From a virus, in the IMG/VR virus record IMGVR_UViG_3300047320_000196, positions 1 through 64,000 of that record: 64,000 bases of DNA; one strand, written 5' to 3'. The notes under the pieces are model-generated. The model ran no database searches, was not told the DNA's origin, and saw nothing but the letters and a program-made list of their open reading frames with translations. Position numbers and translations under genes: made by a program. Every line of letters begins with the position of its first letter. Positions within the stretch are counted from its first letter, which is position 1. Below, one piece after another: positions 186 through 63,939 of the stretch.

Positions 186-207
186 TGTCTGATTTTACTC
201 AGGAATT

Positions 208-253
208 ATGGTCGGGACGGAGTGATTCGAACACTCGACCCCTAGCACCCCAT
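208..253 (-). repeat. att copy A: 3' half of tRNA-Pro(GGG)
   Basis: This is a 46-bp sequence repeated at 15079-15124 and 63894-63939. On the minus strand it reads from the anticodon loop (ATGGGGT) through the anticodon 3' stem, the variable loop and a T-arm (stem GAGTG/CACTC, loop TTCGAAT) to acceptor CGTCCCG, discriminator A and CCA. A C at acceptor position 1 is implied, and anticodon GGG points to proline. The bases to the right do not form a D-arm or 5' acceptor strand, so this is an attachment-site fragment, not a working tRNA. Confidence 0.85.
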
Positions 254-368
254 CTCCTTTTTCATACTTCTTGAAAGCTTTCAAAATTTTACTCTGGAAT
301 ATTCAAAGCTAGTATTTACTTGAGTTTCAGCGGAGTTCTGCTCCACAAAGGTCCAGTAACGTCCATCA

Positions 369-396
369 AGAGCCGACGTTTTTGTGGGGGAAAAAG
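369..396 (+). repeat. Imperfect 28-bp direct repeat, left copy
   Basis: The sequence beginning AGAGCC and containing TTTTGTGGGGG matches 24 of 28 positions with 14998-15025. It lies just upstream of the integrase pseudogene start, where P4-type integrases often have binding or attachment sequences. It could be an arm site or the att of an island nested inside the larger one. Confidence 0.5.
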
Positions 397-413
397 TAGG
401 GGGAACCGATTTT

Positions 414-1085
414 ATGGCCAAAATCACCATCAAAGAACTCGAGTCGCTGACCGCCAACGATGCCGGTCGAATCCTCCGGGAGGATGGCAATCTGGCCGGT
501 CGAATCTCCCTGCGTAAGGACGGTGTGTCGGTCAGCTTTTTCTATCGGTATCGCTGGGGCGACCAGAACAAAGAGTACTCCTGCGGAACCTGGCCGCGCA
601 AATCCCTGACGGACATCCGCAAGGCGCGCAACCAGGCCCGTGCGCTTATTGATGAGCAGATCAATCCCAACGAGCACAAGAAAACCGCGAAGGTGCAGGC
701 ATACGCCGCCGCTAACGTAGAGACCGAACACCTAAAAACAACGAAGGTGCAAACACTGACCGTCCAGGATCTGGTCAAGGCCTAGCTGCTGGATGGTGTC
801 GCGCGTAAAGACGGCAATGCCGAGTTGCAACGACGCTTTAACAAGGACCTTATGCCAGCACTCGGCAAGACCGCAGTGAGCAGCGTCTCCGAACATGATG
901 TCCGGGCGCTGATCCAGGCCGTGGTCAAACGCGGCGCTTACCGGCAGGCCATCAGCTTCTTCGCCGACCTCACCCAGTTGTTCAACTAGGCTAGAAAGCG
1001 CCAACTCTGGCGGGCGTTACTGGTTGAGGGTGATCCGACTGAACTGGTCGACATCTCCCCCCTGATTGCAAACCTCCAGTCCTTG
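414..1085 (+). pseudogene. P4-type tyrosine integrase, N-terminal part, two amber stops
   Basis: The frame starts MAKITIKELE and runs through an N-terminal DUF4102-like arm-binding region (FFYRYRWGDQNKEYSCG) and a core-binding region. It is interrupted by TAG at 783-785 and 987-989, but reading through both gives continuous homology-like sequence (LLDGVARKDGN…, ARKRQLWRALLVEG). Both ambers fall where related integrases usually have Trp, so TGG-to-TAG changes are likely. After about 1085 the similarity stops and the whole catalytic domain is absent. It once integrated this island or one nested in it; it is now dead. Confidence 0.8.
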
Positions 1086-1494
1086 AAGAGGGCCGCTTCC
1101 TTGATGGAGGTGAACCAGGCTGGTCAGTGGTTCCTGGACGCAGCTCAACTATCAGCTTGCCTTCATCAAGGCCTTGGCTATGCCCTTGAGCAAAACCCTC
1201 TGCCAAGCCTTCGGTTTTACCCTCCGGGCGCCCTTCAGTCCGCCCCTCAACGCGGCCCAGTTCCACTCCATGGCCTCTACCCGACTCGAAGCCCTCTCCT
1301 ACGCCGACCAGGTGCTCAGCTTTCCAAGCCGAGCGCTGCTTGAAACCTACGGCGTCGAGAATGAGGTTGGCGAGACCACTGAAAAAGCCACCCTTTACCG
1401 GCATCACGCTTCTGTCAGGGACGGGCGATTTTCCTTCTGCCTCGGCCTGGGCCAGAGGTGATGGGGAATTAGGGTCTGTTGTTGGTGAATCCAC
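991..1494 (-). CDS. Hypothetical protein with EG-rich repeats, probably truncated
   Basis: A minus-strand frame has a plausible N-terminus, a segment FFSGLANLILDAVGFKQR, then a run of short Glu-Gly repeats (EGRTEGRPEGKTEG) as in FliH-like or Yae1-like low-complexity proteins. The last 50 or so codons are Pro/Arg/Ser-rich and overlap the integrase remnant, so the true 3' end was probably replaced when the integrase was truncated. No function is recognised. It may be a fragment of a chromosomal gene scrambled at the island edge. Confidence 0.35.
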   Translation of the reverse strand: MDSPTTDPNSPSPLAQAEAEGKSPVPDRSVMPVKGGFFSGLANLILDAVGFKQRSAWKAEHLVGVGEGFESGRGHGVELGRVEGRTEGRPEGKTEGLAEGFAQGHSQGLDEGKLIVELRPGTTDQPGSPPSRKRPSSRTGGLQSGGRCRPVQSDHPQPVTPARVGAF

Positions 1495-1757
1495 TAGCTG
1501 AAGGCACCCTGCTGTCCTAGAGCGTGCCTGACAGACGTGGCACGCCTTTGTGAAGAAAGGTCAGAGGTTAACACCATAATTGTAACGCCAAGCTTCTAAC
1601 GCCTGGGTTTGCTCTGCCGGATGAAATGCAAACTACGAGGCAGAGGCGCTATGAGAGCGTCTGCGAAGCTATGGCAGGCCAGGGTGTTTTGGATTGCTTT
1701 GCCCTGAAAAAGAAGCGTAGTGTCTACTGCTAACGCCTCACCAACGGAGATGGATCA

Positions 1758-2189
1758 ATGAGCAAAAGTTTTCGTGACCGCATCCAGACAATGAATGCGA
1801 TGTACAAGCTGCCCATCCATGAGGCTCCGCACCTCTTCCCGGATGCAGAAGATCGCCTCCTGAAATTCAAGCGGACGCTGCTCGACGAAGTCGCCGAGAT
1901 CGATGACATTACTGAGCAGATTCGTCGAGGAGACGATGCCATCGATGTTCAGGTCGCCATTGCAGACCTTCTCGGCGACGTCATCGTGTATTGCCGCTCC
2001 GAGGCAATGAAGTACGGCATCCCTCTTGAAGCCGTACTGGAGCTGATCATGGACAGCAACGAGAGCAAGCTAGGTGCCGATGGCAAGGCTATCTACGATG
2101 AGAATGGGAAATTCCTCAAGGGCCCCAATTACTGGAAACCCGAGCCCCAAATCAAGCAGCTCCTGGCAAGCCTCCCGGCCCAAAAGTAA
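1758..2189 (+). CDS. MazG-like all-alpha NTP pyrophosphohydrolase
   Basis: This 143-residue protein has the two metal-binding helices of the MazG/PRA-PH superfamily: LLDEVAEIDDI (E-x-x-E/D) at about residues 40-50 and DLLGDVIVY (ExxD-like, D-x-x-x-D) at about 75-83. Such enzymes hydrolyse (d)NTPs or phosphoribosyl nucleotides to monophosphate and pyrophosphate. GGAG lies 8 bases before ATG. The next gene begins 23 bp downstream on the same strand, so it is probably the first gene of a three-gene operon with the GHKL and PRTase-like genes. The pairing of a nucleotide pyrophosphatase with a PRTase fold suggests nucleotide-pool chemistry, which is inference. Confidence 0.8.
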   Translation: MSKSFRDRIQTMNAMYKLPIHEAPHLFPDAEDRLLKFKRTLLDEVAEIDDITEQIRRGDDAIDVQVAIADLLGDVIVYCRSEAMKYGIPLEAVLELIMDSNESKLGADGKAIYDENGKFLKGPNYWKPEPQIKQLLASLPAQK

Positions 2190-2212
2190 CCCCACGTTTC
2201 AGAGGTGATAGC

Positions 2213-3355
2213 TTGGCAATTAACCACGTGGGGAAGTGCCGGAGCCTGGTTGAGATTGAGGAAATCATCTCCCAGATCGAGTACTCCGACAGCGATACCG
2301 TGTTTCGCTTCCCTATAGACACCCTCGGCGCTCGACATAGCCCGATGCATGACGCATCGCGACTGCAGATGGTCGTTACGCTCGCTCGCCAAAAACTCGA
2401 AGATGACTATCTGGACATTCATCCAAACGCTCAAGAACTGGATGCTCAGCAGGCTGTTTGTGATTACTCACCTGGGATTGCAGGGGTTCGGCTGTCCAAG
2501 GGAATACGGATTGGTAGCAAGGAAATTGATCGCCGAGACGTTCTGACCTTCGCGACCAAAAGAATGCAAGCGATGGATGCTCAAGAGTTTGACGACCTTG
2601 TCAAGGGGCGCTGTATAGACCTCCTGTGCGTCGGAGGTTCCAAAATCCAGTATCTGAAGCCGCTGTTTTCTTCGCGAGGCAAGGCTAAAGAGAAAGACGG
2701 CATGGCCCCAGTGATGCGCACGCTAGTGGATCGTACAACGCAGCAAAGCAGGGCCAAAGTACCTGAGTCCCTGGTCGATGCGCTCGCTTTGTTCTCTGCT
2801 GAGCTTATTCAAAACACCCAAGAGCACGCGATCACAGACCATACTGGCAGGCCGTATCTCTCGCATGTCGAGGGGGTGCTGATGGGCTGGACACGGTTTT
2901 ACGAGTCGACCTTCAAAGACGATTTCTCTGGCCACCCCGATCTGAACAAATACTGGAATGATGAAGCTGCTAGAACCGAAACCGGAGCCAAGAGCCTCCG
3001 GGCATTCGAGATCAGCTATTTTGACTCAGGGCCAGGGTTAGTCAGCCGCTTCACTGGCAAGCGCGTGCAAGAGATGTCACTCGAAGATGAACGACGAGCG
3101 CTTCTCCGTTGCCTGCAGCACAAATCAACGTCGAAATCCCAGACAGCAGCAGGTGAAGGCTTGCCCTCGGTCTTGCAAGAGTTGAGGCAGATCGGCGGGC
3201 TGATGAGGATCCGCACGGGAAGGCTGTCGATGTTCAACGCCTTCACGCCTGGCGATAACCGTGACCTCTTTGCTTTCAATGACTGGACTGAAACCAACCT
3301 TTCGCCCGTTCAAGGTGCGGTCATTTCTATTCTCGTACCGCTGAGGGCTCAGTGA
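2213..3355 (+). CDS. GHKL-type ATPase, second gene of a MazG/GHKL/PRTase operon
   Basis: This 380-residue protein starts with TTG, chosen because AGAGGTGA lies 4 bases upstream. Three GHKL (Bergerat) ATP-binding motifs are visible in order: an N-box ELIQNTQEH at about residue 197, a G1-box DSGPGL at about 270, and a G2-like GEGLPSVLQEL at about 314 followed by GGLMRIRTG. The N-terminal 190 residues match nothing I recognise. There is no kinase phosphoacceptor or transmembrane segment, so it is not an ordinary sensor kinase; a stand-alone switch ATPase (as in Hsp90-, MORC- or MutL-like proteins) is more likely. Its TGA overlaps the ATG of the next gene, implying coupled translation. Confidence 0.75.
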   Translation: MAINHVGKCRSLVEIEEIISQIEYSDSDTVFRFPIDTLGARHSPMHDASRLQMVVTLARQKLEDDYLDIHPNAQELDAQQAVCDYSPGIAGVRLSKGIRIGSKEIDRRDVLTFATKRMQAMDAQEFDDLVKGRCIDLLCVGGSKIQYLKPLFSSRGKAKEKDGMAPVMRTLVDRTTQQSRAKVPESLVDALALFSAELIQNTQEHAITDHTGRPYLSHVEGVLMGWTRFYESTFKDDFSGHPDLNKYWNDEAARTETGAKSLRAFEISYFDSGPGLVSRFTGKRVQEMSLEDERRALLRCLQHKSTSKSQTAAGEGLPSVLQELRQIGGLMRIRTGRLSMFNAFTPGDNRDLFAFNDWTETNLSPVQGAVISILVPLRAQ

Positions 3356-5553
3356 TGGAACGCTTTTATTCCTGGCGGCACCTGAAACACTGCCCCACGC
3401 ACGGCAGCATTGAAGCCCTAGTGCTCTGCTATAAACGCTGCCACCTGACCGAAGGCAATGTGTATACCGATGTAGAGACCGCCCTCAAGAGTGATGCCAA
3501 TCTTCCCGATTGCGTGTACATCGTGGGCTCTACCGAGCAATGCAACACGTTCAAGGCAGCCTGGGATCCGGCCAATCTACACCTGCAAACCATGATCAAG
3601 CGCGGCATGAAGGCTGGCTTTGACTTCGTGAAGCAATACACCTTCGTTGAGTGGGATGGCACAAACTTCAATCAACACGCCCTTGGAGCGCATACGGGCC
3701 CTTACAACGTGGATCTGAAGCTTCTCATAACCCGTGGCGTAAACAGCCTTATCGAGAAGAACAGTGCCATTCACCAGGCCCCCTCTGGCCATGTGTTCAA
3801 GCACCCTTCCCAACGCCGGAACAAGGTCTTCATCCAAGCAAGGGAAATCGCCTCAGGCGAGGCAGAGTTGTACGTCGTCGCATACTTGATCACGCTATGC
3901 CACGGGCAGACCCTGCAAGGGAGCACCAAGGTTTTCATCGATACCATGGGTATCTATGCTTACGTCAAATGCGCCCTGGCCCTGTGCCGCTCCGAGGCAG
4001 AGATAGTCAGCTTCCACTCCTATGATGAGTTGGAGAAGATCAATCCTCCATCAGATCCCTATTTCTGCATTGTCTCCGCCTCGACGTCCGGAAGCATGGC
4101 AAAGAAGATGGCAAGCAGCGTTTGGGATCCTCAGCGAATCGCCACCATCGTCGATGTGACGTCCCAGGGACGAGCCGGCGACGTAATGGTCGCGCTTGAT
4201 AATATGGGGGTCGCATTCCCTGACTTGAAAGTCAGCGACGGCACCCTGATCGAGATCATCGGCGAAAATTTCTCGTCAAAAGCCAAGCCTCCTCGACCAG
4301 TCGTTCTCGGACAGCCACATACTCCGAAAGCCTTGGCCGATTTCCATCAGTTTTTTGGCTTTTCGATAAACCCTTTCAATACCCGAGTTGGAACGAAGAG
4401 CAAGCTGCTGCAGCTTGATGTCATCGAGTTGCTGGAACACGCAGAGTTTAAGAAATGGCTCGACGCAGAAATTGACTGGTCATTCCCCCTGACCGTAAGT
4501 CACGTTATCCACGCCGATGACGAGGCTTCCAAAGCTCTCGCAGTGATCGTCGTGGCTCGCCTGCGCACTCGCTTGGCTGCTGGTTCGTCGATTACGGTGC
4601 TTCCATACCACGAACTGGAGAAGGACAACTGCAAAGACGCCACCGGCGTAGTGATCGTTTCCACCGTCGCCCGAGATGGCGGCGTGCTTCGCGAAATCAG
4701 TCGCGATCTGCGTTCGTACATCAAAGCGTACATTCCGAGGCATTTTCTTTCCCCGATCGGTATCCCCCAGACGAACGCGTCATGGAACCAATTGCGTATG
4801 TTCTTGGTTCGCAACTCCACGACCAGGGAGTACGGCTTTTCCAACTGGATACAGCTCCCACTTGGTGAAGACTCCAATGACAACTCTTGGCATCGCTTGA
4901 TCGAAACTCACAAGGCTCATTCGGAACAAAACATCCATGACCTAGGCCTTGAGCACCTGCCCAACACCTCCAACATCCTGCCGTCCCTCGATCTAGCTGG
5001 AAAGGCAGCCTTAAGTGCGTTTCGAGGATTTTTGCTTTCGCCACGAGGCAACTCGCTGCGGCTCTCAGAAGGTTTTCTCTTTTTCGGAAACAAAACCGAG
5101 ATTGCCAGGCGCTACGCTGACGTTGAGCCCAGCATGGTGCACCTCACAATGGCAGCCGTGCTCCAAAACGCCCGGGAACACAAAGATCACGAAAGGCGTC
5201 TCTGCCCCAACGGCTACGAGTCGGTCGTATTGGCCCCAGAGTGCTTCCTCAGATTCAACGAGGCCATCCTGCAAGCGTGCATGCTGAGGGCATGCCACCC
5301 AGCGGAGTTGGACTACTCATCCAGCCCTGAGCTCAGCAAGGTGATGAAAGAGCTGTTAGTGAAGGTGTTTGCACGTTCGGACAAGGACTTCGGCGACGCA
5401 GCCCTTGAGTTCGCTGCTGCCATCGCCGTAGGCTCGCTTCGGCTGGCGAAAACGGATATGGAAACTCTGCTGGACGATGCGCTGAAGCAGCACGCTGGCA
5501 ATACGTCCGAATTGCTCGGGATGCTTGTGCTGGCCAAGCAAGCTAATCACTAG
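3355..5553 (+). CDS. Large protein with two phosphoribosyltransferase-like repeats
   Basis: This 732-residue protein starts at ATG 3355, overlapping the previous stop (a GTG at 3352 is also possible). Two regions look alike. Around residue 224, YDELEK is followed by CIVSASTSGS; around residue 420, YHELEK is followed by VVIVSTVARDGG. Each resembles the strand and loop that bind PRPP in type I phosphoribosyltransferases, but the usual two acidic residues are replaced, so catalysis may be lost. The C-terminal 200 residues are helical and unassigned. Operon context with a MazG-like enzyme and a GHKL ATPase suggests one system, possibly defence. I do not recognise it as a named system. Confidence 0.65.
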   Translation: MERFYSWRHLKHCPTHGSIEALVLCYKRCHLTEGNVYTDVETALKSDANLPDCVYIVGSTEQCNTFKAAWDPANLHLQTMIKRGMKAGFDFVKQYTFVEWDGTNFNQHALGAHTGPYNVDLKLLITRGVNSLIEKNSAIHQAPSGHVFKHPSQRRNKVFIQAREIASGEAELYVVAYLITLCHGQTLQGSTKVFIDTMGIYAYVKCALALCRSEAEIVSFHSYDELEKINPPSDPYFCIVSASTSGSMAKKMASSVWDPQRIATIVDVTSQGRAGDVMVALDNMGVAFPDLKVSDGTLIEIIGENFSSKAKPPRPVVLGQPHTPKALADFHQFFGFSINPFNTRVGTKSKLLQLDVIELLEHAEFKKWLDAEIDWSFPLTVSHVIHADDEASKALAVIVVARLRTRLAAGSSITVLPYHELEKDNCKDATGVVIVSTVARDGGVLREISRDLRSYIKAYIPRHFLSPIGIPQTNASWNQLRMFLVRNSTTREYGFSNWIQLPLGEDSNDNSWHRLIETHKAHSEQNIHDLGLEHLPNTSNILPSLDLAGKAALSAFRGFLLSPRGNSLRLSEGFLFFGNKTEIARRYADVEPSMVHLTMAAVLQNAREHKDHERRLCPNGYESVVLAPECFLRFNEAILQACMLRACHPAELDYSSSPELSKVMKELLVKVFARSDKDFGDAALEFAAAIAVGSLRLAKTDMETLLDDALKQHAGNTSELLGMLVLAKQANH

Positions 5554-5773
5554 AATGACCCGCTGAAAGTCGGCTTGCCGGCCATGGCATGTCGAATACG
5601 GAGAGACCAAGCAGTAGTTCAGGCAATGAAGTGGCAAATTCGATGGGCCCAATCAACGGCTCACTAATCTTGCTGGGCTACGGATCTGCGAGCCAGACGG
5701 TGGCGTCCGTTGGGACAGGCAGCATGAGCTGCCTGGTCTCGTTAGGCTGAAAACTCCTAGCGCGGCTGATGGA

Positions 5774-5956
5774 TCAATTGAGCCACGACTCAACAGTTCC
5801 CGCACCATACTGTACTTTCCAGGCCTTAAGACCTTTGTGATTTCCCCCTTTGCTCTCTATAAATTCACCCGTGTGGGGATTTACCTGATAGTGCCCCGGC
5901 AACATCGATTCGACAGTGCACCACGGCAATTTTTCGGTCTGAGCGATGGCGTCCAC
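5774..5956 (-). CDS. Possible small protein, 60 aa
   Basis: This is the only convincing frame in the 541-bp gap between 5553 and 6095. The sequence (GHYQVNPHTGEFIESKGG…) has protein-like composition with aromatic and Gly turns, but no clear Shine-Dalgarno precedes the ATG and no family is recognised. The rest of the gap holds nothing I can name. Confidence 0.3.
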   Translation of the reverse strand: MDAIAQTEKLPWCTVESMLPGHYQVNPHTGEFIESKGGNHKGLKAWKVQYGAGTVESWLN

Positions 5957-6094
5957 ACTGTACAGTGGACGTCATGCATGCCATCGGAGCTGATTCGTCG
6001 TAAGCAGTGACGATCGCGTTGATCTAACCAGAGACGGTGACCTCTCCAGGCCATCCTCCGCTGAGCCACCAATTGAGCAGTGCAAGGATTCGCG

Positions 6095-7702
6095 ATGCCC
6101 AGATACCTCAGTAACAGCGCAATACGTCTTTTGGAAGCGAGCCAAGAATCTTTGGCCTTGGCGCTGCATTGCCTGGGCACTCCAAATCGGGGAAGCCTGA
6201 GAGTTGAGGTAGCTCGATACTCCCCCGCGATTGGATTGATCGGAGCCGCCGCTGAGCAGGCTTTGGCTGCAATTATCGTTCAGGTTCGGGGCGATGAGGC
6301 TCTGGCTGCGTCCCCCACCCAGTACAAAAGCGCGCGACAGATTTTGTCGGACATGAGGGATTTACTCCGCGCGCCCATTCCTGCCAGCTCTTTCCTGACC
6401 GCAGGCGTAGCCGACCCCGCTCAACACCGCGAGTCGATCCTGCAGGCGTCAGAAGGATTTTCTGTGCTTTTCACCTACCGGGCGACCGGGCTCCATGCTG
6501 GCCTTGGTTTGTCTCGCACAGTGACACTGAAACAAGCCGTGAAGGTTCACAGTTTCCTTGAGCTCCTATCCAGGTCAACTCGTATCCGCGCCTATATGGA
6601 TCGGTTGCCGATACCACCAGATGAAGTCATCGACCAGACTGTATTGATTGATGACCTCATTCAAAAATTCCAAAGCACCGATGCAATTACCGAGCGGGTC
6701 AACGCCTTACGATCTTTGTTCCTGATCCTCCCCGAAGTCCCCCCAGAAGCACCGGAGTGGCTTGAAGCGTTTGACCGCTCCGTAGTCTCGCCACGCCCTG
6801 CTGACATCACTTTGCTTTTGGAAACACTTGAACGCGCGGCACCAATGAGGTTCCGTCGCATGAATGCAGGGGGCCAAGCACTACCAGTAGTTGTCCGGCC
6901 AAACGACCCAAATGCGTTACCTATCGCCTTGCAGGACATGCGCCAAGCCTTTGGCCACGCGCGTGAGCAGTTTGGCGCAGACGTGGGAAATGCAAATGGA
7001 CGACTCGATCAAGGTATTCTGGATCTGCCCCCAGAGTCCTTCTTGCTCGATTTGTGCCTCCAAGGCCCTGAGCAGCTACGCGAGACTCTGGATCGGCAAA
7101 CGCTCACCGGTCAAGAGGTGTGGCCTTTCGTGGCTACTGCATTGAACCAGCAAGGAACAGAGCGCCCATACTGGTTCTTGGTATCGATGGTCGACGACAT
7201 CGGTCAGCTAATCGGCCAGCTTCGCAGGGCTTCGGCGGTATCGGCTCAGGGACAGTTCAAAGAACGCTGTACCGCAGCCATCAGAGCCCTTGAGGCCAAA
7301 AGACAGGAGCGCACACTTCCGCCAGCTACTGAAATTGCGACCTTTACCGTCACACAATCTGCTGCGGCTGAAACCGCACGAGAAAGCATCCCCGACTCGA
7401 TGGAGCGCAACGAAGGCACTGTTCGTGAAGCCTCTTTGGAAGCAATGCCGCCACTAGCCGCGTTATATGCCGGCGAATTCACTGCCGGCCAGGCTTTTCC
7501 TGCGGTGTATGCGTCCGAGAATCCAGATTCTAAGAAATACTGGACTCGCCAGTTGCTCATAGCAGCGACCGATGCCAGCGACCGCTCAATGCTCATCACT
7601 GCCCTGCGAGACCCTGAATTCGCCAACCTAAAGACGGATGCTCGAAAAGCGCTGCGCCTGGTAGATATTCTGACCTACGGGCCGAATATCGAACTAGGGT
7701 GA
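6095..7702 (+). CDS. Unknown 535-aa protein, partner of the downstream nuclease gene
   Basis: ATG 6095 is preferred over 6080 because AAGGA lies 6-7 bases before it. The protein is mostly predicted helix. An early segment (IGLIGAAAEQALAAIIVQV, about residues 45-63) is hydrophobic but too Ala-rich and charged at its edges to be a secure membrane span. No catalytic motif is visible. The nuclease gene follows after 37 bp on the same strand, so the two probably form a unit. It may be a sensor or immunity partner; this is inference from gene order alone. Confidence 0.6.
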   Translation: MPRYLSNSAIRLLEASQESLALALHCLGTPNRGSLRVEVARYSPAIGLIGAAAEQALAAIIVQVRGDEALAASPTQYKSARQILSDMRDLLRAPIPASSFLTAGVADPAQHRESILQASEGFSVLFTYRATGLHAGLGLSRTVTLKQAVKVHSFLELLSRSTRIRAYMDRLPIPPDEVIDQTVLIDDLIQKFQSTDAITERVNALRSLFLILPEVPPEAPEWLEAFDRSVVSPRPADITLLLETLERAAPMRFRRMNAGGQALPVVVRPNDPNALPIALQDMRQAFGHAREQFGADVGNANGRLDQGILDLPPESFLLDLCLQGPEQLRETLDRQTLTGQEVWPFVATALNQQGTERPYWFLVSMVDDIGQLIGQLRRASAVSAQGQFKERCTAAIRALEAKRQERTLPPATEIATFTVTQSAAAETARESIPDSMERNEGTVREASLEAMPPLAALYAGEFTAGQAFPAVYASENPDSKKYWTRQLLIAATDASDRSMLITALRDPEFANLKTDARKALRLVDILTYGPNIELG

Positions 7703-7739
7703 CCACGATCCGTTCAACGACATCGGAGCCCCCCTGCGC

Positions 7740-9116
7740 ATGCCTCGAACCCAGCAAAACCTCACCAGTCTGCGAGATACCTTCAGTCAGATCTTGGGCA
7801 ACCAGAAAGACCACTACACGGATACACGGATCCCTGAATTGCTTTTCAGGCTAGGGCTGGATGATTGCACTGAGTACAGCTCCAAAAGGCAACACCTTGA
7901 GAAAGCAGTAGAAGCTTCGAGTGATGCTCAAATGTTGGCTGCCGCTCAGACGGCCTTGGAACTGATCGGCTTTGCGGCTCATGAGCGAGACCAGCTTCAA
8001 GAGCTGGTGTGGGACGATGGAACAGCGCCTGTCATCCCCGGTCGTTACCGAAGAGAGCTGGCAGAAAGGCTCAACCCCATCGAGCTTTTCATAGACAGGG
8101 CTGCTTTTGAACACGTGCTCGGTGAGTTCTGGCAAATCGACACGATGTCGTTTGTGAATTTGCTGCGACCGACCCCGACACTTCGCCAAGAAATTGTCCG
8201 CCACTACATCGAAAATCCCGATTGGGATGCGGTGACGATCTTCGACAAGCTCGGAGCGTTTCAGTCCTCGCATGCCCGATTTGGCCGATTCGTCGAAGCC
8301 TTGGCTTCCTCGCGGGTATTGCCCAGCGAACCCGCTCAGCGAAAATTCATTGAGATCGTCAACGATACCCTCAAAACGTGTGGAGTCCACATTGTCGTCG
8401 GGGTGGGGGACGATGCCTTCCTGACGGCCTCCTTGGCTTACGTAGGATCAGCCAAGCAGTCCTCCCCCAAGAACCTGATCTTCGCCTCCACCACGAAGCC
8501 AGATCTGCGACTCGGCAACGCCCTGGACAACGATATAGAGGTGATGTCCGACCCAACGGATATCCTGATCTATGACCGACCTATCGGAAGCACCGGCCTC
8601 TTGTGGCGCGACCTACAGGCTTGGTATGCCCAAACCTATGACATCGAGGAAGGCCAGGCCAAAAATCGCCTATATCGGCGCCTGGAGGCCTGCCTGCCTA
8701 AATCATCGCCCCCTCAAGCGCTAGCCTTCAGCAGCTTTTTCAAGGCCTTCACGACACTCATTCCTGAACTTCCAGTCTTACTGCCCGAGGTCTGGTTTCA
8801 CTGGGATCCCCTGACGGTCTCACGGCGCGGCAAGGAGGCATTGCTCAGGTCGCGCATGGACTTCCTTCTACTATTGCCGGGCGGGGTGCGGGTTGTCATC
8901 GAGATTGATGGCAAACACCACTATTGCGATGCAACCGGACGCTCAAGTCCCCACCTCTACGCCGAGATGATGGCAGCTGACAGGGCTCTAAGGCTGGTGG
9001 GGTATGAGGTCTATCGCTTCGGTGTTCACGAGCTTCAGCAGCCTAATGCCGAGGAGGTGCTGATAATATTCTATCGCTCGCTGTTTGAACGTTACTCATT
9101 GCTACCGGCACCGTGA
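7740..9116 (+). CDS. Protein with C-terminal PD-(D/E)XK nuclease domain
   Basis: In this 458-residue protein, the C-terminal 90 residues show a restriction-endonuclease-like core: RMDFLLLL at about residue 371, then VVIEIDGKHHY at about 385 (D … E-x-D-G-K), and LVGYEVYRFGVHEL near 425, the Vsr/DUF559-like layout. The N-terminal 60 residues (LRDTFSQILG…LLFRLGLDDC) and the middle region resemble AbiJ N-terminal-type modules found in phage-exclusion proteins, but that match is by eye and uncertain. GGAG is 11 bases upstream of ATG. Together with the preceding gene it makes a plausible two-gene defence unit with a DNA-cleaving effector. Confidence 0.7.
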   Translation: MPRTQQNLTSLRDTFSQILGNQKDHYTDTRIPELLFRLGLDDCTEYSSKRQHLEKAVEASSDAQMLAAAQTALELIGFAAHERDQLQELVWDDGTAPVIPGRYRRELAERLNPIELFIDRAAFEHVLGEFWQIDTMSFVNLLRPTPTLRQEIVRHYIENPDWDAVTIFDKLGAFQSSHARFGRFVEALASSRVLPSEPAQRKFIEIVNDTLKTCGVHIVVGVGDDAFLTASLAYVGSAKQSSPKNLIFASTTKPDLRLGNALDNDIEVMSDPTDILIYDRPIGSTGLLWRDLQAWYAQTYDIEEGQAKNRLYRRLEACLPKSSPPQALAFSSFFKAFTTLIPELPVLLPEVWFHWDPLTVSRRGKEALLRSRMDFLLLLPGGVRVVIEIDGKHHYCDATGRSSPHLYAEMMAADRALRLVGYEVYRFGVHELQQPNAEEVLIIFYRSLFERYSLLPAP

Positions 9117-9356
9117 TTCACTGATCCCATAAGCCGAAGATCGCTTAGCCTGAGCGCTGAAAAACTTTCCGCGAAGTAATTGATCAACGCCGATGCTTGC
9201 GGCCTCTTCCTGGATTCATATTGCTCCTCCAAATCCACAGATGGCACCATGTGGAAGACCTGATCATCACGATAGAATTTCAGCGAGACGCTGGGATGCT
9301 CACCCTCGCCCCCCGAAGGCTCACATTTTCAAAATCTACCAAGGAAATCGAAATTC

Positions 9357-10385
9357 ATGGACAGTGTTTTTGAAGGTACCTTCCCTACTGACGCGAGCCC
9401 AGAGGAAATCTTCCCGCAAAACGCGCTCTCAATATTGCCATTCGTTCCGGAGGCCATATCAGCCTGGGCGTCAGGAAACGACCTGCATACCTTCATTCAC
9501 AAACTACTTGAAGGTACGGGTTATGAAGATCAGGCAGATGAAAGGCTGGAGGGAGCGATCAACCAAGCCCTGGCTTTGGCAGACCACTTTGCAGAGACCG
9601 CAAGTCATTCAATGCCGGCGCCTGGTGCACGAACCCAAGCACCCGTGATGGTCGACTTTGAGCATGACCCTGTGTTCGGACGGTTAGCCAAGACATTGAT
9701 AGCTTGGCAAGAGACCATCGGCAACGTCTTGTCCGAAGCAGGATATTTTTCTCTTTCACACATGCTTGAAACCCGGTCTGATCTGATGTGCTCTGTACAG
9801 CTGGCGGGCGCGCTGTACTACCGTCAGTCCATGCAAGTGCTGCGCGGATTCATCGAAAGCGTCATTTTACCAATCCATTTTTGCAGACGGCCCGAGCTGT
9901 TCAAGAAATGGAAATCTAACGAGTACCAAGCGCCTTCGATACGTGGCAAGGACGGAGTTCTATCGCGCCTGAAAAAAGATGGGATCATTTCGACAGAGCT
10001 GGAAACTACCATCTCCGATGCCTACAGCCTGCTCAATGGGTATATCCATGGTAGCGAAGAGAAACTGAACAACACCGGCCTGGATCGAGGCGAGTGGGAA
10101 GGTCATACATTCCAACAGGCGCGGTTCGAGGCATGGGCGCAGGTCTTTGCCTCACTCATCGAGGCCTCCCTCCCTCTCGTCAAAATCAATTTATCTCAGT
10201 GGGCAACAGCCAGGTTAGATTGGGAATTGTTCTGTAGCGTATGCCATGGTCATGACCTCGAAACCAAGCAGCAAAGAATTGACCCACCGATGACTCAGCA
10301 TCAGTGTAAGCAATGCAGTCATACCTTCTGGAGGAATGAGGACGGCCAGCAATTCGTGCATGCAACCGTAGAATTTCTCGACTGA
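9357..10385 (+). CDS. Possible HEPN-like protein with C-terminal zinc ribbon
   Basis: This 342-residue protein has a central helical region containing LRGFIESVILPIHF (about residues 162-175) and, 50 residues later, YSLLNGYIHGS. This pattern resembles HEPN-like helical bundles, although the canonical R-x4-6-H is not exact. Near the C-terminus C-x2-C (CSVC, about 292) and C-x2-C (CKQC, about 316) should bind one zinc ion. It is separated by 240 bp from the nuclease gene, so it may have its own promoter. No named family is recognised. An RNase or nucleic-acid-binding role would fit the neighbourhood but is not shown. Confidence 0.55.
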   Translation: MDSVFEGTFPTDASPEEIFPQNALSILPFVPEAISAWASGNDLHTFIHKLLEGTGYEDQADERLEGAINQALALADHFAETASHSMPAPGARTQAPVMVDFEHDPVFGRLAKTLIAWQETIGNVLSEAGYFSLSHMLETRSDLMCSVQLAGALYYRQSMQVLRGFIESVILPIHFCRRPELFKKWKSNEYQAPSIRGKDGVLSRLKKDGIISTELETTISDAYSLLNGYIHGSEEKLNNTGLDRGEWEGHTFQQARFEAWAQVFASLIEASLPLVKINLSQWATARLDWELFCSVCHGHDLETKQQRIDPPMTQHQCKQCSHTFWRNEDGQQFVHATVEFLD

Positions 10386-10688
10386 TCATTTCATGCGCTC
10401 AGGGCTGTGGAGAAGACCTCAACAGCCCGCCATGCAAACAGACTTTTTAGCTGACCTGCACGGGGATAGCCCAAGCCAAGCCCACGAGTTAACATTTGGG
10501 CGTTATTAGCTCTCCACGACTCCATGACTCGGGACTCAAGACTCAGGGCTCCCATGACGCTGATCGGGAAGGTTTAAGCTTTGGCCTGTACCTTCACCCA
10601 AACCAATCATTCGTGTTTACAGAGAGCCGAAAGCTAGTAAGTCGATCACCGCGCCATGTAAGGGTGACCGACAAACTATACAGTCGGA
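10386..10688. other. 303-bp gap between convergent cargo units
   Basis: No gene is supported. The stretch at 10511-10552 contains GACTC four times in about 40 bp. The gap separates the plus-strand cargo from the minus-strand ABC-three-component operon. No T-run terminator hairpin is obvious. Confidence 0.5.
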
Positions 10689-12506
10689 TCAGCCTCGTAG
10701 TGGGAAGAAGCCGTATCTCCCACTCTTTCTGCTTTTCGTGAAGTGCTGATAATTCAAATGAGGGATGAGCGCCATATCAGGCTCCTTGTTCTCAAATACA
10801 ATCACTTGAGAATCTTTGAAGTTGTCGGCAATATCCTGATAGAACGCATAAATCACGTCCGCTGCCACTTCCTCATCATCTTCCTCAGGCTCCGGATCCC
10901 CTTCTTTGTATGTCGTCAGTGGCGAATCAAGCACCACAAAGCCAGGGTGGCGCCCAGAGAGTTTTAGTAGATTCATCAGCCCTAGAGCAAATGCAGAAGA
11001 CGCGATGGCTCGATACCCCTTGCCAAAATTGCCTCTCGCACTCCCACCAATGGTGATGTCCCGTGCTTTGAAGTTGAATTCCACCGGGGCGTGATTCGGG
11101 AAACTCCAGCGCTGCAAGATATCCTGAATCTCTTTAACCAAAGGCTTGGCAGACTCCTCAAAGCTTTCAGGGGTGTATTTGTTTTGCTCCTCAAGCAGCA
11201 ATACACCCAGCTTTTTCAGTTCCCCTCTTAGCTTGGCCTTATTCGTAACGTACTTATCCAGCGCCGAGTGATCCTGGTTGAGGCATGAGGCTAGCTCCTT
11301 CAGATCGCTCACCAGCTGCACTGAGCTCTGAATCTCTGTGGAGATCAACTTCTCCAGTGCTGCGATGGACGTTTTGGTAGTCTCAGCGGTGGAAGTATTC
11401 CGTTCAATCGCTGCCGCCAGGGATCCCTGTGCCTCCCCAAGCTCATGGAGGTTTTTCGAAATTCGCTCCAGCTCGAAGGAAACCCCCTTCTTGATGTCAT
11501 CGACATCGGTTGTGCATGATTCGGAGTCGAAATGATTGCCACAGGTTGGACAAAGCACCGCGTCTGACTCGTCGAGTAAGACTGCCGCTTGCTCAATTCC
11601 CTGTAGACGCTGGCGGTCTGATTCATATTTCTGGCCAAGCATGCCAAACCGCCCCAGTAGGGCCCTATCTTCAGCAATTTTTCCTTCGACCACTTCCAGT
11701 TCGGAGATATGGCTGGCCTTTTGGGTGAATAGCCCTTCACTCGAATGAAAAGCGCCTTCCAGCTCAGTTTCAGCCACCTTGAGCCGAAGCTTAACTTGGG
11801 TCGTAAAAGAACTGAGCTTCTGGAGTTCAAGCGCCTCAGCCGCGTCGTCACCTGGATAGAATTGCTTGATAATGTCTTCGACAGCAGCTGCCCTGTGCCT
11901 CAATGCCCCTTTTGACGCCAACTCCTTTTTAGCCTGTTTAACCCCGGTGTCGTCTTTCCCCGTCAGCAACAGCTTCAGAATGGATGTCTCCATAGTGCGC
12001 TCATCTTTCTGACCCGTACCCAGTGGAGAGTACTCAGCCACGATTCGCGTTTCATCCATCAAAAATACTTTTTCGAAATCACGAAGAGAGAACGAAGCGT
12101 TATTGAGAGAGGCTGTACCTTTCAACAACAGCTTTCCATTCAACCCCAACCTATCCAGGAATTGATTGGAGATCGAATTCATCTTTGTAGGGTTATGTTT
12201 CACCCCCAGGGTTTGAACCTTCCCCTCTTCATCGTAAAAAGTAGGCTTAGAGCTTTCTGAAAGGTGCCTCTCAATCGTGAAGGAGCGCCCATCATCGTGC
12301 ACAAACTTAACCTTGAGAGTGGTGTAGCCCTGCGACTCGTTGATAGGCTTTGGAGGCGTATTTGCACCAAGGGCAAACTTCAGGCACTGAACGATGTAGG
12401 ACTTACCAGTGTTGGAGCCGCCTTGAACAACGTTCGCACCCTTCTCAAAATAAACAGCGGCATCTGCACGGTCAGGGCCACTCACGACAACGCTTTCAAT
12501 ATACAT
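10689..12506 (-). CDS. Rad50/SMC-like ATPase of an ABC-three-component system
   Basis: In this 605-residue protein, Walker A GGSNTGKS is at about residues 29-36. Long coiled-coil arms flank a CPTC zinc-hook motif at about residue 317, and Walker B FVVLDSP is near residue 523. This is the Rad50/RecN-like layout in compact form. Its start overlaps the stop of the middle-component gene, and with the nuclease gene upstream it forms the three-gene arrangement described for ABC-3C conflict systems by Krishnan, Burroughs, Iyer and Aravind. In that model the ATPase senses unusual DNA and licenses the effector. Confidence 0.85.
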   Translation of the reverse strand: MYIESVVVSGPDRADAAVYFEKGANVVQGGSNTGKSYIVQCLKFALGANTPPKPINESQGYTTLKVKFVHDDGRSFTIERHLSESSKPTFYDEEGKVQTLGVKHNPTKMNSISNQFLDRLGLNGKLLLKGTASLNNASFSLRDFEKVFLMDETRIVAEYSPLGTGQKDERTMETSILKLLLTGKDDTGVKQAKKELASKGALRHRAAAVEDIIKQFYPGDDAAEALELQKLSSFTTQVKLRLKVAETELEGAFHSSEGLFTQKASHISELEVVEGKIAEDRALLGRFGMLGQKYESDRQRLQGIEQAAVLLDESDAVLCPTCGNHFDSESCTTDVDDIKKGVSFELERISKNLHELGEAQGSLAAAIERNTSTAETTKTSIAALEKLISTEIQSSVQLVSDLKELASCLNQDHSALDKYVTNKAKLRGELKKLGVLLLEEQNKYTPESFEESAKPLVKEIQDILQRWSFPNHAPVEFNFKARDITIGGSARGNFGKGYRAIASSAFALGLMNLLKLSGRHPGFVVLDSPLTTYKEGDPEPEEDDEEVAADVIYAFYQDIADNFKDSQVIVFENKEPDMALIPHLNYQHFTKSRKSGRYGFFPLRG

Positions 12507-12940
12507 CAGACCACCCTGTCAATTTTATAAATAGTGCGCCGTTGAGCAGCGAGAAAATCAACATTAGCCTCGACCCAAGAAACACGTCTTCTGAAATCCA
12601 CATGGTATTCAGTACTCAACTTGGCGGCAAACACACTACCCGCACTGGTGATAGAGTATCGAACACCTTTCTCATCAACTTGGGAAGTAATCAAACCTTT
12701 AGCGGTAAATAGTTTTATGGCGCTTGGGAAAATTTCTCGCCTACGCACCAGTTCGGCAAGTCGATTCAAAAGGACTGGATGCAGGCTTGCATCCCCTTGA
12801 AAGTCACTACTATAAATAGAGGCATAGTCAAAGAATATAAGTTCATCGAGATCAAGCTGCCGGGCTAAGCCTGCAAGCAACAGAACAATGCGTGCACCAA
12901 CTTCCACAGGGCTGTTGTACAAATCCTTTGAGCTCGTCAT
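12506..12940 (-). CDS. ABC-3C middle component
   Basis: This 144-residue protein begins TSSKDLYNSPVEVGARIVLLL and contains a winged-helix-like second half (LFTAKGLI…GVRYSITSAGSVFAA). This is the hallmark of ABC-three-component middle components, small proteins that bridge the effector and the ATPase. Its ATG directly follows the stop of the effector gene, and its TGA overlaps the ATG of the ATPase gene, so all three are translationally coupled. Confidence 0.8.
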   Translation of the reverse strand: MTSSKDLYNSPVEVGARIVLLLAGLARQLDLDELIFFDYASIYSSDFQGDASLHPVLLNRLAELVRRREIFPSAIKLFTAKGLITSQVDEKGVRYSITSAGSVFAAKLSTEYHVDFRRRVSWVEANVDFLAAQRRTIYKIDRVV

Positions 12941-14011
12941 CTATTTCTTAATCCATTTAAACTTTAGGTCATTCACCAGTTGATGACATAGCCCCTTTCG
13001 ATCGGAGGTCTGCAAGAAATGCCGAAGTGGATGAGAGTCATATGGAATATTAACGGACTGCGTGCTTACTTCGAGAAAACGTTGATACCCATCATCGAAT
13101 TTCTTACGCACCACGCTGTGCAAGCCTTCGTGGCACTCACCTTTGAGGCTTTCATAGCATCCTGTAGGAAAAGCATCGCGCGAAAATATCTCCAGTGACT
13201 CAGCGCTGAAAAAGTTAATCCGCGCTCGCTCAAGATCTTCCTTATACTCAGTGTCCATGACGCTACTGAATGAATACTCTGCACCATCGGCATCAGAGAA
13301 CGCATCTAAAAGCGCATCAATATAAATTTTCTCATTATCACCAACAGCGCTGGGCTCAGGCTTCCGAACCTGCGGTCGCTTAAGATGATAGCTTCCAAAC
13401 CGCGTCGTGTGATATGGCGTCAGGGCGTGCCTATCAATTAACTCCTGTGAAGACATTTCATCAACAAATGAAAAATCAAGGGTATTTATATAATCCAACA
13501 GACCACCCTCAAGAGGAATGGACTCCTTCTTCGTAATCTTATCCTTACATACCTTATCCCAACGCTTAATGATCTCAGCCTTGATGCGAGACTTCTTGGA
13601 CAGCATATCGATGCAATCAGAGCTGCAGCCTTTAGGGGAAACAAAGCGGTACTCACGCGGCAGGGTGTAATCCTCCCTCCACGTGTAGTAAACCAGCTTA
13701 CCCAGCTCCCCAACTACGTTTGCTACGCTCAGTTTATCTTTGTAGTGCTTGCATTGGTAATTGTCCCACCCCGTCGCATGCCGCGCGATGACATCGCGCC
13801 CCTTGTCTCCCGCACCAGCACAGCGAGTGACCGATTCGTAGTCTTTACCTAAGTAAGAGACGAACTCCAGCGTAAAGATTTCCCAAGTATCCGCAGACAT
13901 GATCTGCAGGCGATCCAGGGGATGAACTGTTTCACCTTTTTCTACATCCAGTGCTGTGAGCTCGAATTCCGGGGGTGGAGGGAGCTTAATGGCATTTTCA
14001 CCAAAAGACAT
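12941..14011 (-). CDS. ABC-3C effector with Mrr-like nuclease domain
   Basis: In this 356-residue protein the N-terminal part carries a restriction-endonuclease-like core: WEIFTLEFVSYLG, then GAGDKGRDVIARH (catalytic Asp at about residue 70) and YQCKHYK (Q-x-K, about 88), the Mrr-type D…QxK variant. The C-terminal 200 residues, including LIDRHALTPYHTTRFGSYH, correspond to the ABC-3C C-terminal domain that ties effectors to the complex. It is first in a three-gene minus-strand operon. The expected activity is DNA cleavage on activation by the ATPase; activity is inferred from the motif. Confidence 0.85.
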   Translation of the reverse strand: MSFGENAIKLPPPPEFELTALDVEKGETVHPLDRLQIMSADTWEIFTLEFVSYLGKDYESVTRCAGAGDKGRDVIARHATGWDNYQCKHYKDKLSVANVVGELGKLVYYTWREDYTLPREYRFVSPKGCSSDCIDMLSKKSRIKAEIIKRWDKVCKDKITKKESIPLEGGLLDYINTLDFSFVDEMSSQELIDRHALTPYHTTRFGSYHLKRPQVRKPEPSAVGDNEKIYIDALLDAFSDADGAEYSFSSVMDTEYKEDLERARINFFSAESLEIFSRDAFPTGCYESLKGECHEGLHSVVRKKFDDGYQRFLEVSTQSVNIPYDSHPLRHFLQTSDRKGLCHQLVNDLKFKWIKK

Positions 14012-14065
14012 TAGCTACTCCTCTGCGACAAGGTGCTTTGCTTGCTGAGTTGTAATTAGCCCATA

Positions 14066-14371
14066 TCATAATCCGAGGTCGCGCTCCACCTGTAGAGTCT
14101 GGATACGATCTGGCATCTCACCAAGGATTTTATTTGGATTCTTCCGCAAGACGCCCGTGAGCTTCTTCAGGAAACGCTGATTCAACTCCATATTCCCCAT
14201 CAGTTCGGCAATAATGATTTCAGGGTCAACGTCAGCTTCTTCCAGTCCAATTGCCAGCGCCGCGCGGGCTGCGCCGATGGGTTTGTCCATCGCGTATTCG
14301 ACTAGATCGGCAGGATGAAAAGCATATTCCTGCTTCTGTTCCTGGCCCTTTTCCTGCTCCTGCTCACTCAT
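14066..14371 (-). CDS. Hypothetical acidic/helical protein, 101 aa
   Basis: This has a Gln/Glu-rich N-terminus (EQEQEKGQEQKQEY) followed by a helical region (AARAALAIGLEEADVDPEIIIAELMG). It lies 54 bp upstream of the ABC-3C effector on the same strand and could be the first gene of that transcript. No family is recognised. Confidence 0.55.
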   Translation of the reverse strand: MSEQEQEKGQEQKQEYAFHPADLVEYAMDKPIGAARAALAIGLEEADVDPEIIIAELMGNMELNQRFLKKLTGVLRKNPNKILGEMPDRIQTLQVERDLGL

Positions 14372-14997
14372 GCATGAGTTCCTTAGTTGTCGGCATATTG
14401 TTCGTCTGGGGATTCGTCTGGGTTCTTGAGTTACTGGGCTTTCAGGCTTTCAAGCGGGTGCTCTTCTAATCGCATGCACGACTAAGACTCCCAAGTAGCC
14501 GCCTCGGGATATGATGGTCGTCTGTCTGCGTTTCTGTGGCGTAGCTGATCCATGCCGAATTCCTACCGCCCTACTCTCCCCTTAGGCGGGGGTGGCTGGG
14601 CATCTAAGTGTCCATAGGTAATGGCACAATACTATCTTTATGCGCCGTGCTGGGGAACCCGACGGGGCGCCTGGAGGGCTAACTGGAGGAGTCGTGCGGG
14701 GCACTTGGGGACTGAGGGTTATGGAATTGCGGGCTTTGTGTGGGGGTGGGGGTAGCCGACATGTTCATCGATTTGAGAAAAATGGACAATGGACAATGGA
14801 CAAAAAAATAAGCTACTGATTTGTATAGATTTGACATGTCCATTTATGGATTTAGCTCACACGTACAGAACTTATCGGACGCGGCCACGACTTTTTCCTA
14901 ATCGTCGAGAACAAGATTTCAGCCGATTCAATAAAGAGACCACGCGTGAGCGCTAACGCCTGCGTCTACCCACGTGAAAGCCGTGAGAATTCCACCC
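14372..14997. other. About 630-bp gap before the island's right edge
   Basis: There is no convincing gene. A 31-codon plus-strand frame at 14374-14469 (MSSLVVGILFVWG…) would encode a single membrane-spanning peptide but lacks a ribosome site. Around 14784-14806 ATGGACA is repeated three times in tandem, with an inverted TGTCCAT about 40 bp later. G-rich low-complexity sequence occurs near 14730-14755. Confidence 0.5.
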
Positions 14998-15025
14998 AGA
15001 GCCAGCGATTTTGTGGGGGTAAAAT
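14998..15025 (+). repeat. Imperfect 28-bp direct repeat, right copy
   Basis: This matches 369-396 at 24 of 28 positions, including TTTTGTGGGGG. It lies 54 bp left of att copy B. See the left copy for interpretation. Confidence 0.5.
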
Positions 15026-15031
15026 CGTTCA

Positions 15032-15072
15032 CAAATAAAAAGGGTCGCGAAATAAAATCTCGCAACCCTTTG
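15032..15072 (-). terminator. Hairpin terminator next to att copy B
   Basis: AAGGGTCGCGA (15040-15050) pairs with TCGCAACCCTT (15060-15070) with one mismatch and a 9-base loop. On the minus strand it is followed by TTTTATTT. It lies just downstream of the minus-strand tRNA half, where a tRNA terminator belongs. It differs from the hairpin beside copies A and C, so this flank has a different origin, possibly the ancestral chromosome. Confidence 0.65.
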
Positions 15073-15078
15073 ATTTAT

Positions 15079-15124
15079 ATGGTCGGGACGGAGTGATTCG
15101 AACACTCGACCCCTAGCACCCCAT
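15079..15124 (-). repeat. att copy B: 3' half of tRNA-Pro(GGG), prophage left end
   Basis: This is identical over 46 bp to copies A and C. The bases to its right (TGCTGGGAACTC) cannot complete the anticodon 5' stem or D-arm, so it too is a fragment. It is the boundary between the defence island and the prophage. Confidence 0.85.
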
Positions 15125-62469: not shown

Positions 62470-62682
62470 ATGAACCGAGAATTGATCAAGATCAGCGAGT
62501 TTCAACGTCGGCGCTGGGGTGAGAACGGTACACCACCCTGCCCCCAAGCGATCCGCAACTACATCCGCAACGGCCAGGTGCCCGGCGAGCAAATCGGCAA
62601 ACTCTGGTACGTTGATTGGACAGCGTTCAGCCGGTCAGACGGCAATGATCTGGTCGCGATGGTATTGAAAGGAGCTGCATGA
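62470..62682 (+). CDS. xis: Excisionase-like protein
   Basis: This 70-residue protein (MNRELIKISEFQRRRWGENG, PQAIRNYIRNGQVPGEQIGK, WYVDW) has the winged-helix layout of excisionases. It overlaps the integrase start (ATGATGG). It would bend attR/attL DNA and drive excision by the integrase. Confidence 0.85.
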   Translation: MNRELIKISEFQRRRWGENGTPPCPQAIRNYIRNGQVPGEQIGKLWYVDWTAFSRSDGNDLVAMVLKGAA

Positions 62683-63794: not shown

Positions 63795-63837
63795 TTTTGC
63801 GCGGGTTTTGCGCGGGTTTTGCGCGGGTTTTGCGCAG
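63794..63837 (+). repeat. Four 11-bp tandem repeats between int and att
   Basis: GTTTTGCGCGG is repeated in tandem at 63794, 63805, 63816 and 63827 (last one ends AG). The first base is the G of the int stop codon. The left element has two copies at 130-151. These are candidate arm-type integrase sites. Confidence 0.75.
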
Positions 63838-63840
63838 GCA

Positions 63841-63870
63841 CAAAAAAGCCGATCTAGATGATCGGCTTAA
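63841..63870 (-). terminator. Hairpin terminator next to att copy C
   Basis: AAGCCGATC (63846-63854) pairs with GATCGGCTT (63860-63868) with a 5-base loop and a T-run on the minus strand. It is the same design as beside copy A. It would end transcription of the tRNA restored at this side, and could also stop int. Confidence 0.65.
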
Positions 63871-63893
63871 GTGTCTGATTTTACTCAGGAATA

Positions 63894-63939
63894 ATGGTCG
63901 GGACGGAGTGATTCGAACACTCGACCCCTAGCACCCCAT
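63894..63939 (-). repeat. att copy C: 3' half of tRNA-Pro(GGG), prophage right end
   Basis: This is identical to copies A and B. Homology to the copy A region extends left through the hairpin, the 11-bp repeats and the end of int. To the right (63940-64000) there is no D-arm or 5' acceptor strand, so the true tRNA gene is still further right and another element or remnant begins here. Confidence 0.85.

What the first reader, a model, noticed from the sequence alone, without database searches (positions are those of the whole stretch)
1758..5553. MazG-like, GHKL ATPase and duplicated PRTase-like proteins in one tight operon
Three genes sit with a 23-bp gap and then a TGATG overlap inside a defence island. 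The motifs seen are MazG helices, GHKL N/G1/G2 boxes, and two PRPP-loop-like segments. MazG enzymes and PRTases both handle nucleotide or PRPP chemistry, and a GHKL ATPase could be the switch. I do not recognise this trio as a named defence system; that it is one system is inference from gene order.
Basis: partly seen in the sequence, partly recalled or inferred. Interest (0 to 1): 0.72.

Follow-up and report, generated by a model that had tools for sequence, protein, structure and literature searches.

The report
GHKL–PRTase candidate defence gene pair
Two of the three genes form a widespread but rare and untested bacterial two-gene module, an ATP-driven switch plus a protein with two worn-down phosphoribosyltransferase-like domains, that often sits among anti-virus genes, whereas the third gene (MazG-like) is an optional neighbour rather than part of a fixed trio.

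Summary
In detail: a MazG-like gene (1758-2189), a GHKL ATPase gene A (2213-3355) and gene B (3352-5553) lie in tandem, 23 bp apart and then overlapping. A and B are a real unit: A lies directly upstream of B in 90 of 90 loci where the contig reaches far enough, in several phyla, and their divergences track each other (r 0.91). The MazG-like gene is beside A-B only here; its close relatives lie without A-B. PADLOC already lists the pair as candidate PDC-M65A/B; I found no experimental work. B folds like an orotate phosphoribosyltransferase, but both PRPP loops lack the acidic pair in 77 of 77 relatives, so PRPP catalysis is unlikely. Most invariant residues lie in a C-terminal helical domain. 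Type I restriction genes flank A-B far above chance (10 versus 0.3 expected), and three lineages place a dUTP/dTMP enzyme beside it. The genes lie in a 14.9-kb defence island between repeats of the tRNA-Pro(GGG) 3' end, with an integrase remnant and Lamassu, beside a prophage. Best reading: an ATP-gated defence pair with a ligand-sensing or scaffolding PRTase fold; defence and mechanism remain inferred.

The parts
207..253 (.). left direct repeat of the island: 47 bp identical to 15078-15124, the 3' end of tRNA-Pro(GGG) (attachment-site-like)
   Evidence: the 44-mer is the 3' part of tRNA-Pro(GGG) in Pseudomonas genomes
414..1067 (+). integrase remnant: matches residues 1-218 of an intact 483-aa integrase at 89% identity, with a stop at 783-785 and the rest missing
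   Evidence: tblastn; Pfam Arm-DNA-bind_3 on 384-785
1758..2189 (+). MazG-like all-alpha NTP pyrophosphohydrolase, 143 aa; ExxE, ADxxxD and SN-SKL residues kept; optional neighbour of the pair
   Evidence: not found beside A-B elsewhere
2213..3355 (+). protein A (PDC-M65A): N-terminal alpha/beta domain plus GHKL ATPase domain, 380 aa
   Evidence: PADLOC E 1.2e-28; model pLDDT 93.5; fold match to GyrB-type ATPases
2801..2827 (+). GHKL N box of A (E197xxxN201...H205)
   Evidence: E197 nearly invariant, N201 invariant
3023..3037 (+). GHKL G1 box of A (DSGPG, D271 G273 G275 invariant)
3152..3163 (+). GHKL G2 box of A (GEGL, G314 G316 invariant)
3352..5553 (+). protein B (PDC-M65B): N-terminal domain, two PRTase-like halves, C-terminal helical domain, 732-733 aa
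   Evidence: PADLOC E 7.6e-53; model pLDDT 90.1; orotate PRTase fold, E 8e-5, probability 1.00
4063..4098 (+). first PRPP-loop-like segment of B (FCIVSASTSGSM), acidic pair replaced by S-A
   Evidence: S242 in 77/77, A243 in 73/77, no acidic residue in any
4648..4689 (+). second PRPP-loop-like segment of B (VVIVSTVARDGGVL), acidic pair replaced by small residues
   Evidence: positions 437-438 hold no acidic residue in 77 sequences; G443 in 74/77
5173..5421 (+). conserved C-terminal helical motif region of B (R608, R634-F-N-D/E637, Q641, R646, E652, S662, E686), proposed functional centre
   Evidence: 8 of the 13 invariant columns of B lie here
6080..7702 (+). island gene of unknown function, 540 aa
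   Evidence: no family match above cut-off
7740..9116 (+). AbiJ_NTD3 protein (abortive-infection type), 458 aa
   Evidence: Pfam PF18860 E 3e-31
10689..14011 (-). Lamassu defence system LmuA, LmuC, LmuB
   Evidence: PADLOC E 5e-102, 5e-35, 1.6e-141
15078..15124 (.). right direct repeat of the island and left repeat of the adjacent prophage (tRNA-Pro 3' end)

Best explanation
Genes A and B form a two-protein, ATP-gated anti-phage module (PADLOC candidate PDC-M65). A is a GHKL ATPase that serves as the switch. B is its partner and probably the effector: two tandem orotate-PRTase-like halves that have lost the PRPP-binding acidic pair act as a binding or scaffolding part (most likely for a nucleotide or other phosphorylated ligand), and the strongly conserved C-terminal helical domain is the likely functional centre. 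Infection, perhaps through a changed deoxynucleotide pool, would shift A's ATP state and release or activate B, halting growth of the phage or the cell. Accessory genes dock beside the pair in different lineages (ThyX, dUTPase, the MazG-like protein here, type I restriction genes), so the MazG-like gene is an optional partner. Shown: the genes, the obligatory pair, the folds, the loss of PRPP acids, the genomic company. Inferred: defence, ATP gating, ligand sensing, effector site, and the link to nucleotide pools. The confidence given is for the defence pair as such; for the detailed mechanism I would say about 0.25.
For: A directly upstream of B on the same strand in 90/90 loci where the contig allows, 87 of them with overlap or a gap of at most 15 bp; distance matrices of A and B correlate at 0.91, 0 of 999 permutations as high. 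All 58 B proteins tested match PDC-M65B and no other PADLOC family. GHKL residues kept and GHKL fold. Orotate PRTase fold of B with acidic pairs absent in 77/77. Eight of 13 invariant B residues in the C-terminal domain. Type I methylase genes in or at the edge of the A-B neighbourhood in 10 of 50 genomes against 0.30 expected, in about six separate lineages. Company of Lamassu and AbiJ here, Qat, TIR and ubiquitin-like genes. Patchy spread: 142 relatives in about 85,000 species genomes by a pattern-limited scan, 1 of 398 in one order, and plasmids.
Against: No experiment. PADLOC candidates are guilt-by-association predictions, so the database match is not independent evidence of defence. Many A-B loci have unremarkable neighbours (for example Pantoea plasmids). 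The near-versus-far PADLOC scan did not separate cleanly because both sets come from the same islands. No ligand, trigger or target is identified; the C-terminal domain matches no known family.
Confidence: 0.6

Rival explanations
1. The three genes are one nucleotide-based system: the MazG-like enzyme destroys dNTPs or a modified nucleotide, B supplies PRPP-dependent chemistry, and A switches it.
For: Tandem order with a 23-bp gap and an overlap; MazG catalytic residues are kept; ThyX overlaps A in Rhizobiales and a dUTPase lies 24 bp upstream of A in one MAG, so dUTP/dTMP enzymes recur at this place in three lineages.
Against: MazG is beside A-B only in this window; its nearest relatives lie without A-B; the five closest A-B relatives show no MazG upstream; the PRPP acidic pair is absent in all 77 B proteins.
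Confidence: 0.15
2. A-B is a regulatory or stress module (for example a partner-switching or cofactor-sensing pair) that merely travels in genomic islands and has no direct anti-phage role.
For: GHKL proteins without a histidine-kinase dimerisation domain and PRTase-fold proteins without catalysis are both known in regulation (general knowledge); several loci lie among ordinary metabolic genes.
Against: Strong excess of type I restriction genes nearby and of defence systems in this island; rare and patchy distribution over several phyla.
Confidence: 0.25
3. About the third gene only: the MazG-like gene is a stray phage or island gene that came to lie upstream of A by chance and serves dUTP or modified-nucleotide cleansing independently. 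(This rival concerns the third gene and is compatible with the best explanation for A-B.)
For: Relatives occur in phages and viral contigs and next to other operons on Cupriavidus plasmids.
Against: Same strand and 23-bp gap suggest co-transcription; dUTP/dTMP enzymes occupy the same place in other lineages.
Confidence: 0.45

Closest known systems
PADLOC candidate PDC-M65 (models PDC-M65A and PDC-M65B, PADLOC-DB 2.0.0)
   Same: Both proteins match the two models (E 1.2e-28 and 7.6e-53), in the same order and adjacent
   Different: Catalogue entry only; no function found in the paper search; the MazG-like neighbour is not one of the two models
Orotate phosphoribosyltransferase (type I PRTase fold, e.g. 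PDB 2yzk, 4ohc)
   Same: Predicted fold of part of B matches with probability 1.00 and TM-score 0.5-0.6 over the target
   Different: The acidic pair that binds the PRPP ribose is missing in both halves in 77 of 77 relatives; sequence profiles barely match
GHKL ATPases (GyrB, ParE, Hsp90, HATPase_c)
   Same: N, G1 and G2 boxes and fold
   Different: No topoisomerase, chaperone or kinase partner domains; own N-terminal domain
Type III retron PRTase-like effector
   Same: A PRTase-like protein used in an anti-phage system (PMC12548924)
   Different: No PADLOC retron match for B and no reverse transcriptase model among the scanned island proteins
Predicted defence operons with MazG, dUTPase, thymidylate synthase (DefensePredictor, PMC13092281)
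   Same: The same kinds of nucleotide enzymes turn up as predicted (MazG, dUTPase) or validated (thymidylate synthase) defence domains
   Different: The paper's text does not describe a GHKL plus double PRTase-like pair; figures could not be read
MazG-like NTP pyrophosphohydrolases of phages (PHROG 671; PDB 3nl9)
   Same: Sequence match and conserved acidic residues
   Different: Substrate unknown; below the Pfam MazG cut-off

Membership tests
PDC-M65 (PADLOC candidate system) | protein A matches model PDC-M65A | tested here: met
   E 1.2e-28 over residues 14-378
PDC-M65 (PADLOC candidate system) | protein B matches model PDC-M65B | tested here: met
   E 7.6e-53; 58 of 58 relatives match too
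PDC-M65 (PADLOC candidate system) | A and B adjacent in the same orientation | tested here: met
   overlapping genes here; 90 of 90 testable loci
PDC-M65 (PADLOC candidate system) | protects against phage | not testable with these tools
   no experiment possible; no report found
GHKL ATPase | N, G1 and G2 boxes with E, N, D and glycines | tested here: met
   N201, D271, G273, G275, G314, G316 invariant and E197 nearly so in 73 sequences
GHKL ATPase | Bergerat (GHKL) fold | tested here: met
   the 50 best PDB matches listed are all GHKL ATPases, though the best E is only 5e-3, probability 0.85
Type I PRTase (catalytic) | PRTase fold | tested here: met
   orotate PRTase matches E 8e-5, probability 1.00
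Type I PRTase (catalytic) | acidic pair in the PRPP loop | tested here: not met
   absent in both halves in 77 of 77 sequences
Type I PRTase (catalytic) | match to a Pfam PRTase family | tested here: not met
   no PRTase family in 58 B proteins; no profile match to PRTase-CE
MazG-like NTP pyrophosphohydrolase | ExxE and downstream acidic residues | tested here: met
   conserved in window, viral, plasmid and phage relatives
MazG-like NTP pyrophosphohydrolase | Pfam MazG score above the cut-off | tested here: not met
   15.5 bits against 22; PHROG 671 match E 6e-18 instead
Type III retron | reverse transcriptase and ncRNA beside the PRTase | tested here: not met
   no PADLOC match for such parts among ten island proteins; no Rfam match in the window

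The most novel reading that the evidence does not exclude
A-B is a nucleotide-pool-gated immune switch: two non-catalytic PRTase-like domains read a pyrimidine nucleotide or PRPP level, a GHKL ATPase sets the state, a new type of helical effector acts, and interchangeable dUTP/dTMP enzymes (MazG-like, dUTPase, ThyX) tune or protect the host pool.
Probability: 0.2. Interest if true: 0.78.

Novelty: new member of a known kind. Interest (0 to 1): 0.5.

Why it matters
The kind itself is only a catalogue entry. This work gives the pair a first anatomy (GHKL ATPase plus double, PRPP-dead PRTase fold plus a conserved helical domain), shows that it is an obligatory and co-diverging pair spread over several phyla, and names residues and accessory genes that make its function testable. 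If it is immune, it would add a second use of PRTase folds in defence beside type III retrons, and would link defence to the dUTP/dTMP branch of nucleotide metabolism.

Tried and rejected
Single-protein scans of viral contigs and phages for B found nothing; an alignment-based scan found three viral contigs. No E. coli DNA match. PDB sequence search with B, alone or as a profile, gave nothing. PRTase-CE (Pfam PF24390), raised by one weak viral fold match, was fetched and compared: no relation. Profile comparison with PyrE gave only a short weak match at the PRPP loop, so the PRTase claim rests on fold plus loop position. An attempt to contrast near with far neighbours for defence families failed as a control because both come from the same islands; it was replaced by the genome-wide hsdM expectation. 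ThyX near A-B was first suspected to be the housekeeping enzyme; it is the only ThyX of the three genomes tested, but they also carry ThyA elsewhere, so it looks accessory. The ThyX group is a single lineage on the tree, so it counts as one event, not six. Larger sampling by order gave only 1 hit in 398 genomes.
Full report
What was checked. The three reading frames exist at the given coordinates, with a 23-bp gap between the MazG-like gene and A and a TGATG overlap between A and B. The first gene is MazG-like by PHROG 671 (E 6e-18) and by a solved putative NTP pyrophosphohydrolase (E 3e-5), although it stays under the Pfam cut-off. A keeps the GHKL boxes across 73 relatives and its model (pLDDT 93.5) matches GyrB-type ATPases best, weakly in score but with a uniform top list. 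B has no Pfam match, but its model (pLDDT 90.1) matches orotate phosphoribosyltransferases with probability 1.00.

The catalogue already holds A and B. PADLOC-DB lists them as PDC-M65A and PDC-M65B, and all 58 B relatives tested match that model. PDC entries are mostly unvalidated candidates (PMC12988326); I found no paper naming PDC-M65. Another candidate of the series, PDC-M66 (HipA plus DUF3037), is described as a phage defence system able to function on its own (PMC12548924), so the list contains real systems.

The pair is the unit. Plasmid, genome and viral scans gave 93 further loci (sets). A lies directly upstream of B on the same strand in all 90 loci where the contig extends far enough (the window included), with overlap or at most 15 bp in 87, and distances among A proteins and among B proteins correlate at 0.91. 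Carriers include Pseudomonadota, Bacteroidota, Planctomycetota, Acidobacteriota, Campylobacterota and a Melainabacteria MAG. The system is rare: 142 relatives in some 85,000 species genomes by a scan limited to one peptide pattern, so a lower bound, and 1 of 398 genomes of one order.

The MazG-like gene is optional. No other A-B locus has it. Its closest relatives lie on two Cupriavidus plasmids at 71% identity, beside other genes, and in viral contigs and phages. Yet dUTP/dTMP enzymes do recur at this place: ThyX overlapping A in Rhizobium, Agrobacterium and Mesorhizobium and downstream of B in Bosea, one lineage on the tree; and a dUTPase 24 bp upstream of A in L088 (Pfam E 2e-29). In the three genomes tested the ThyX is the only one, while ThyA is present elsewhere. 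This class of enzymes was chosen after seeing the data, so I treat it as a lead, not a result.

Defence company. In 50 A-B genomes there are 57 HsdM matches; 0.30 would be expected inside windows of the size of the loci, and ten lie within them or at their edge (P about 1e-12 if independent, about 1e-9 for eight), in roughly six separate lineages. Other neighbours include Qat, TIR and ubiquitin-like genes and, in the window, AbiJ_NTD3 and Lamassu.

The island. A 47-bp stretch at 207-253 recurs at 15078-15124 and, over 46 bp, at 63894-63939. It is the 3' end of tRNA-Pro(GGG). The island 207-15124 therefore looks like an integrated element beside a prophage (15.1-63.9 kb) whose integrase is at 62679-63794. 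The island's own integrase is a remnant: 89% identical to residues 1-218 of an intact Pseudomonas integrase at the same tRNA, with a stop and a missing 3' part. Phage-part matches are to phages of Pseudomonas first, then to phages of E. coli.

How it may work. B has two PRTase-like halves, weakly similar to each other. Both lack the acidic pair of the PRPP loop in 77 of 77 sequences: S-A in the first, small residues in the second. Classical PRPP-dependent transfer is thus unlikely, while binding of a phosphorylated ligand remains possible. Eight of 13 invariant residues fall in the C-terminal helical domain (R608, R634, N636, Q641, A642, E652, S662, E686), which I take as the likely functional centre. 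With an intact GHKL ATPase as partner, the simplest model is an ATP-gated pair in which B senses or scaffolds and acts. The trigger, target and outcome are not known.

Verdict. Real, conserved and interesting, but already catalogued as a candidate; the trio reading is not supported, the pair is.

Noticed in passing
window 207-253, 15078-15124, 63894-63939: Three copies of the tRNA-Pro(GGG) 3' end mark a tandem array: defence island, prophage, and a further element to the left, since 88-253 is about 83% similar to 63752-63939.
   Followed up: partly
window 414-1067: Decayed integrase of the defence island (internal stop, missing 3' part); an intact relative sits at the same tRNA in a Pseudomonas genome (L133).
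   Followed up: yes
window 6080-7702 and 9357-10385: Two unknown island genes flanking the AbiJ_NTD3 gene at 7740-9116, with no family match above cut-off.
   Followed up: no
L057 4456-8671, L064 4522-8731, L069 4456-8665: A follows hsdR by 34 bp in Bacteroidota, as if A-B were part of a type I restriction operon.
   Followed up: partly
L070 6897-7835, L006 4531-5481, L083 10636-11571: A second thymidylate synthase (ThyX) tied to A-B in Rhizobiales that already have ThyA.
   Followed up: partly
B proteins (alignment A3), linker between the two PRTase-like halves: Most relatives carry a CxxC...GS zinc-ribbon-like stretch before the conserved GD/GExF motif; the window copy lacks the cysteines.
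   Followed up: no
L100 4279-11482: The 71% MazG-like relative on a Cupriavidus plasmid lies convergent to a four-gene operon with an N-6 DNA methylase, possibly another defence system.
   Followed up: no
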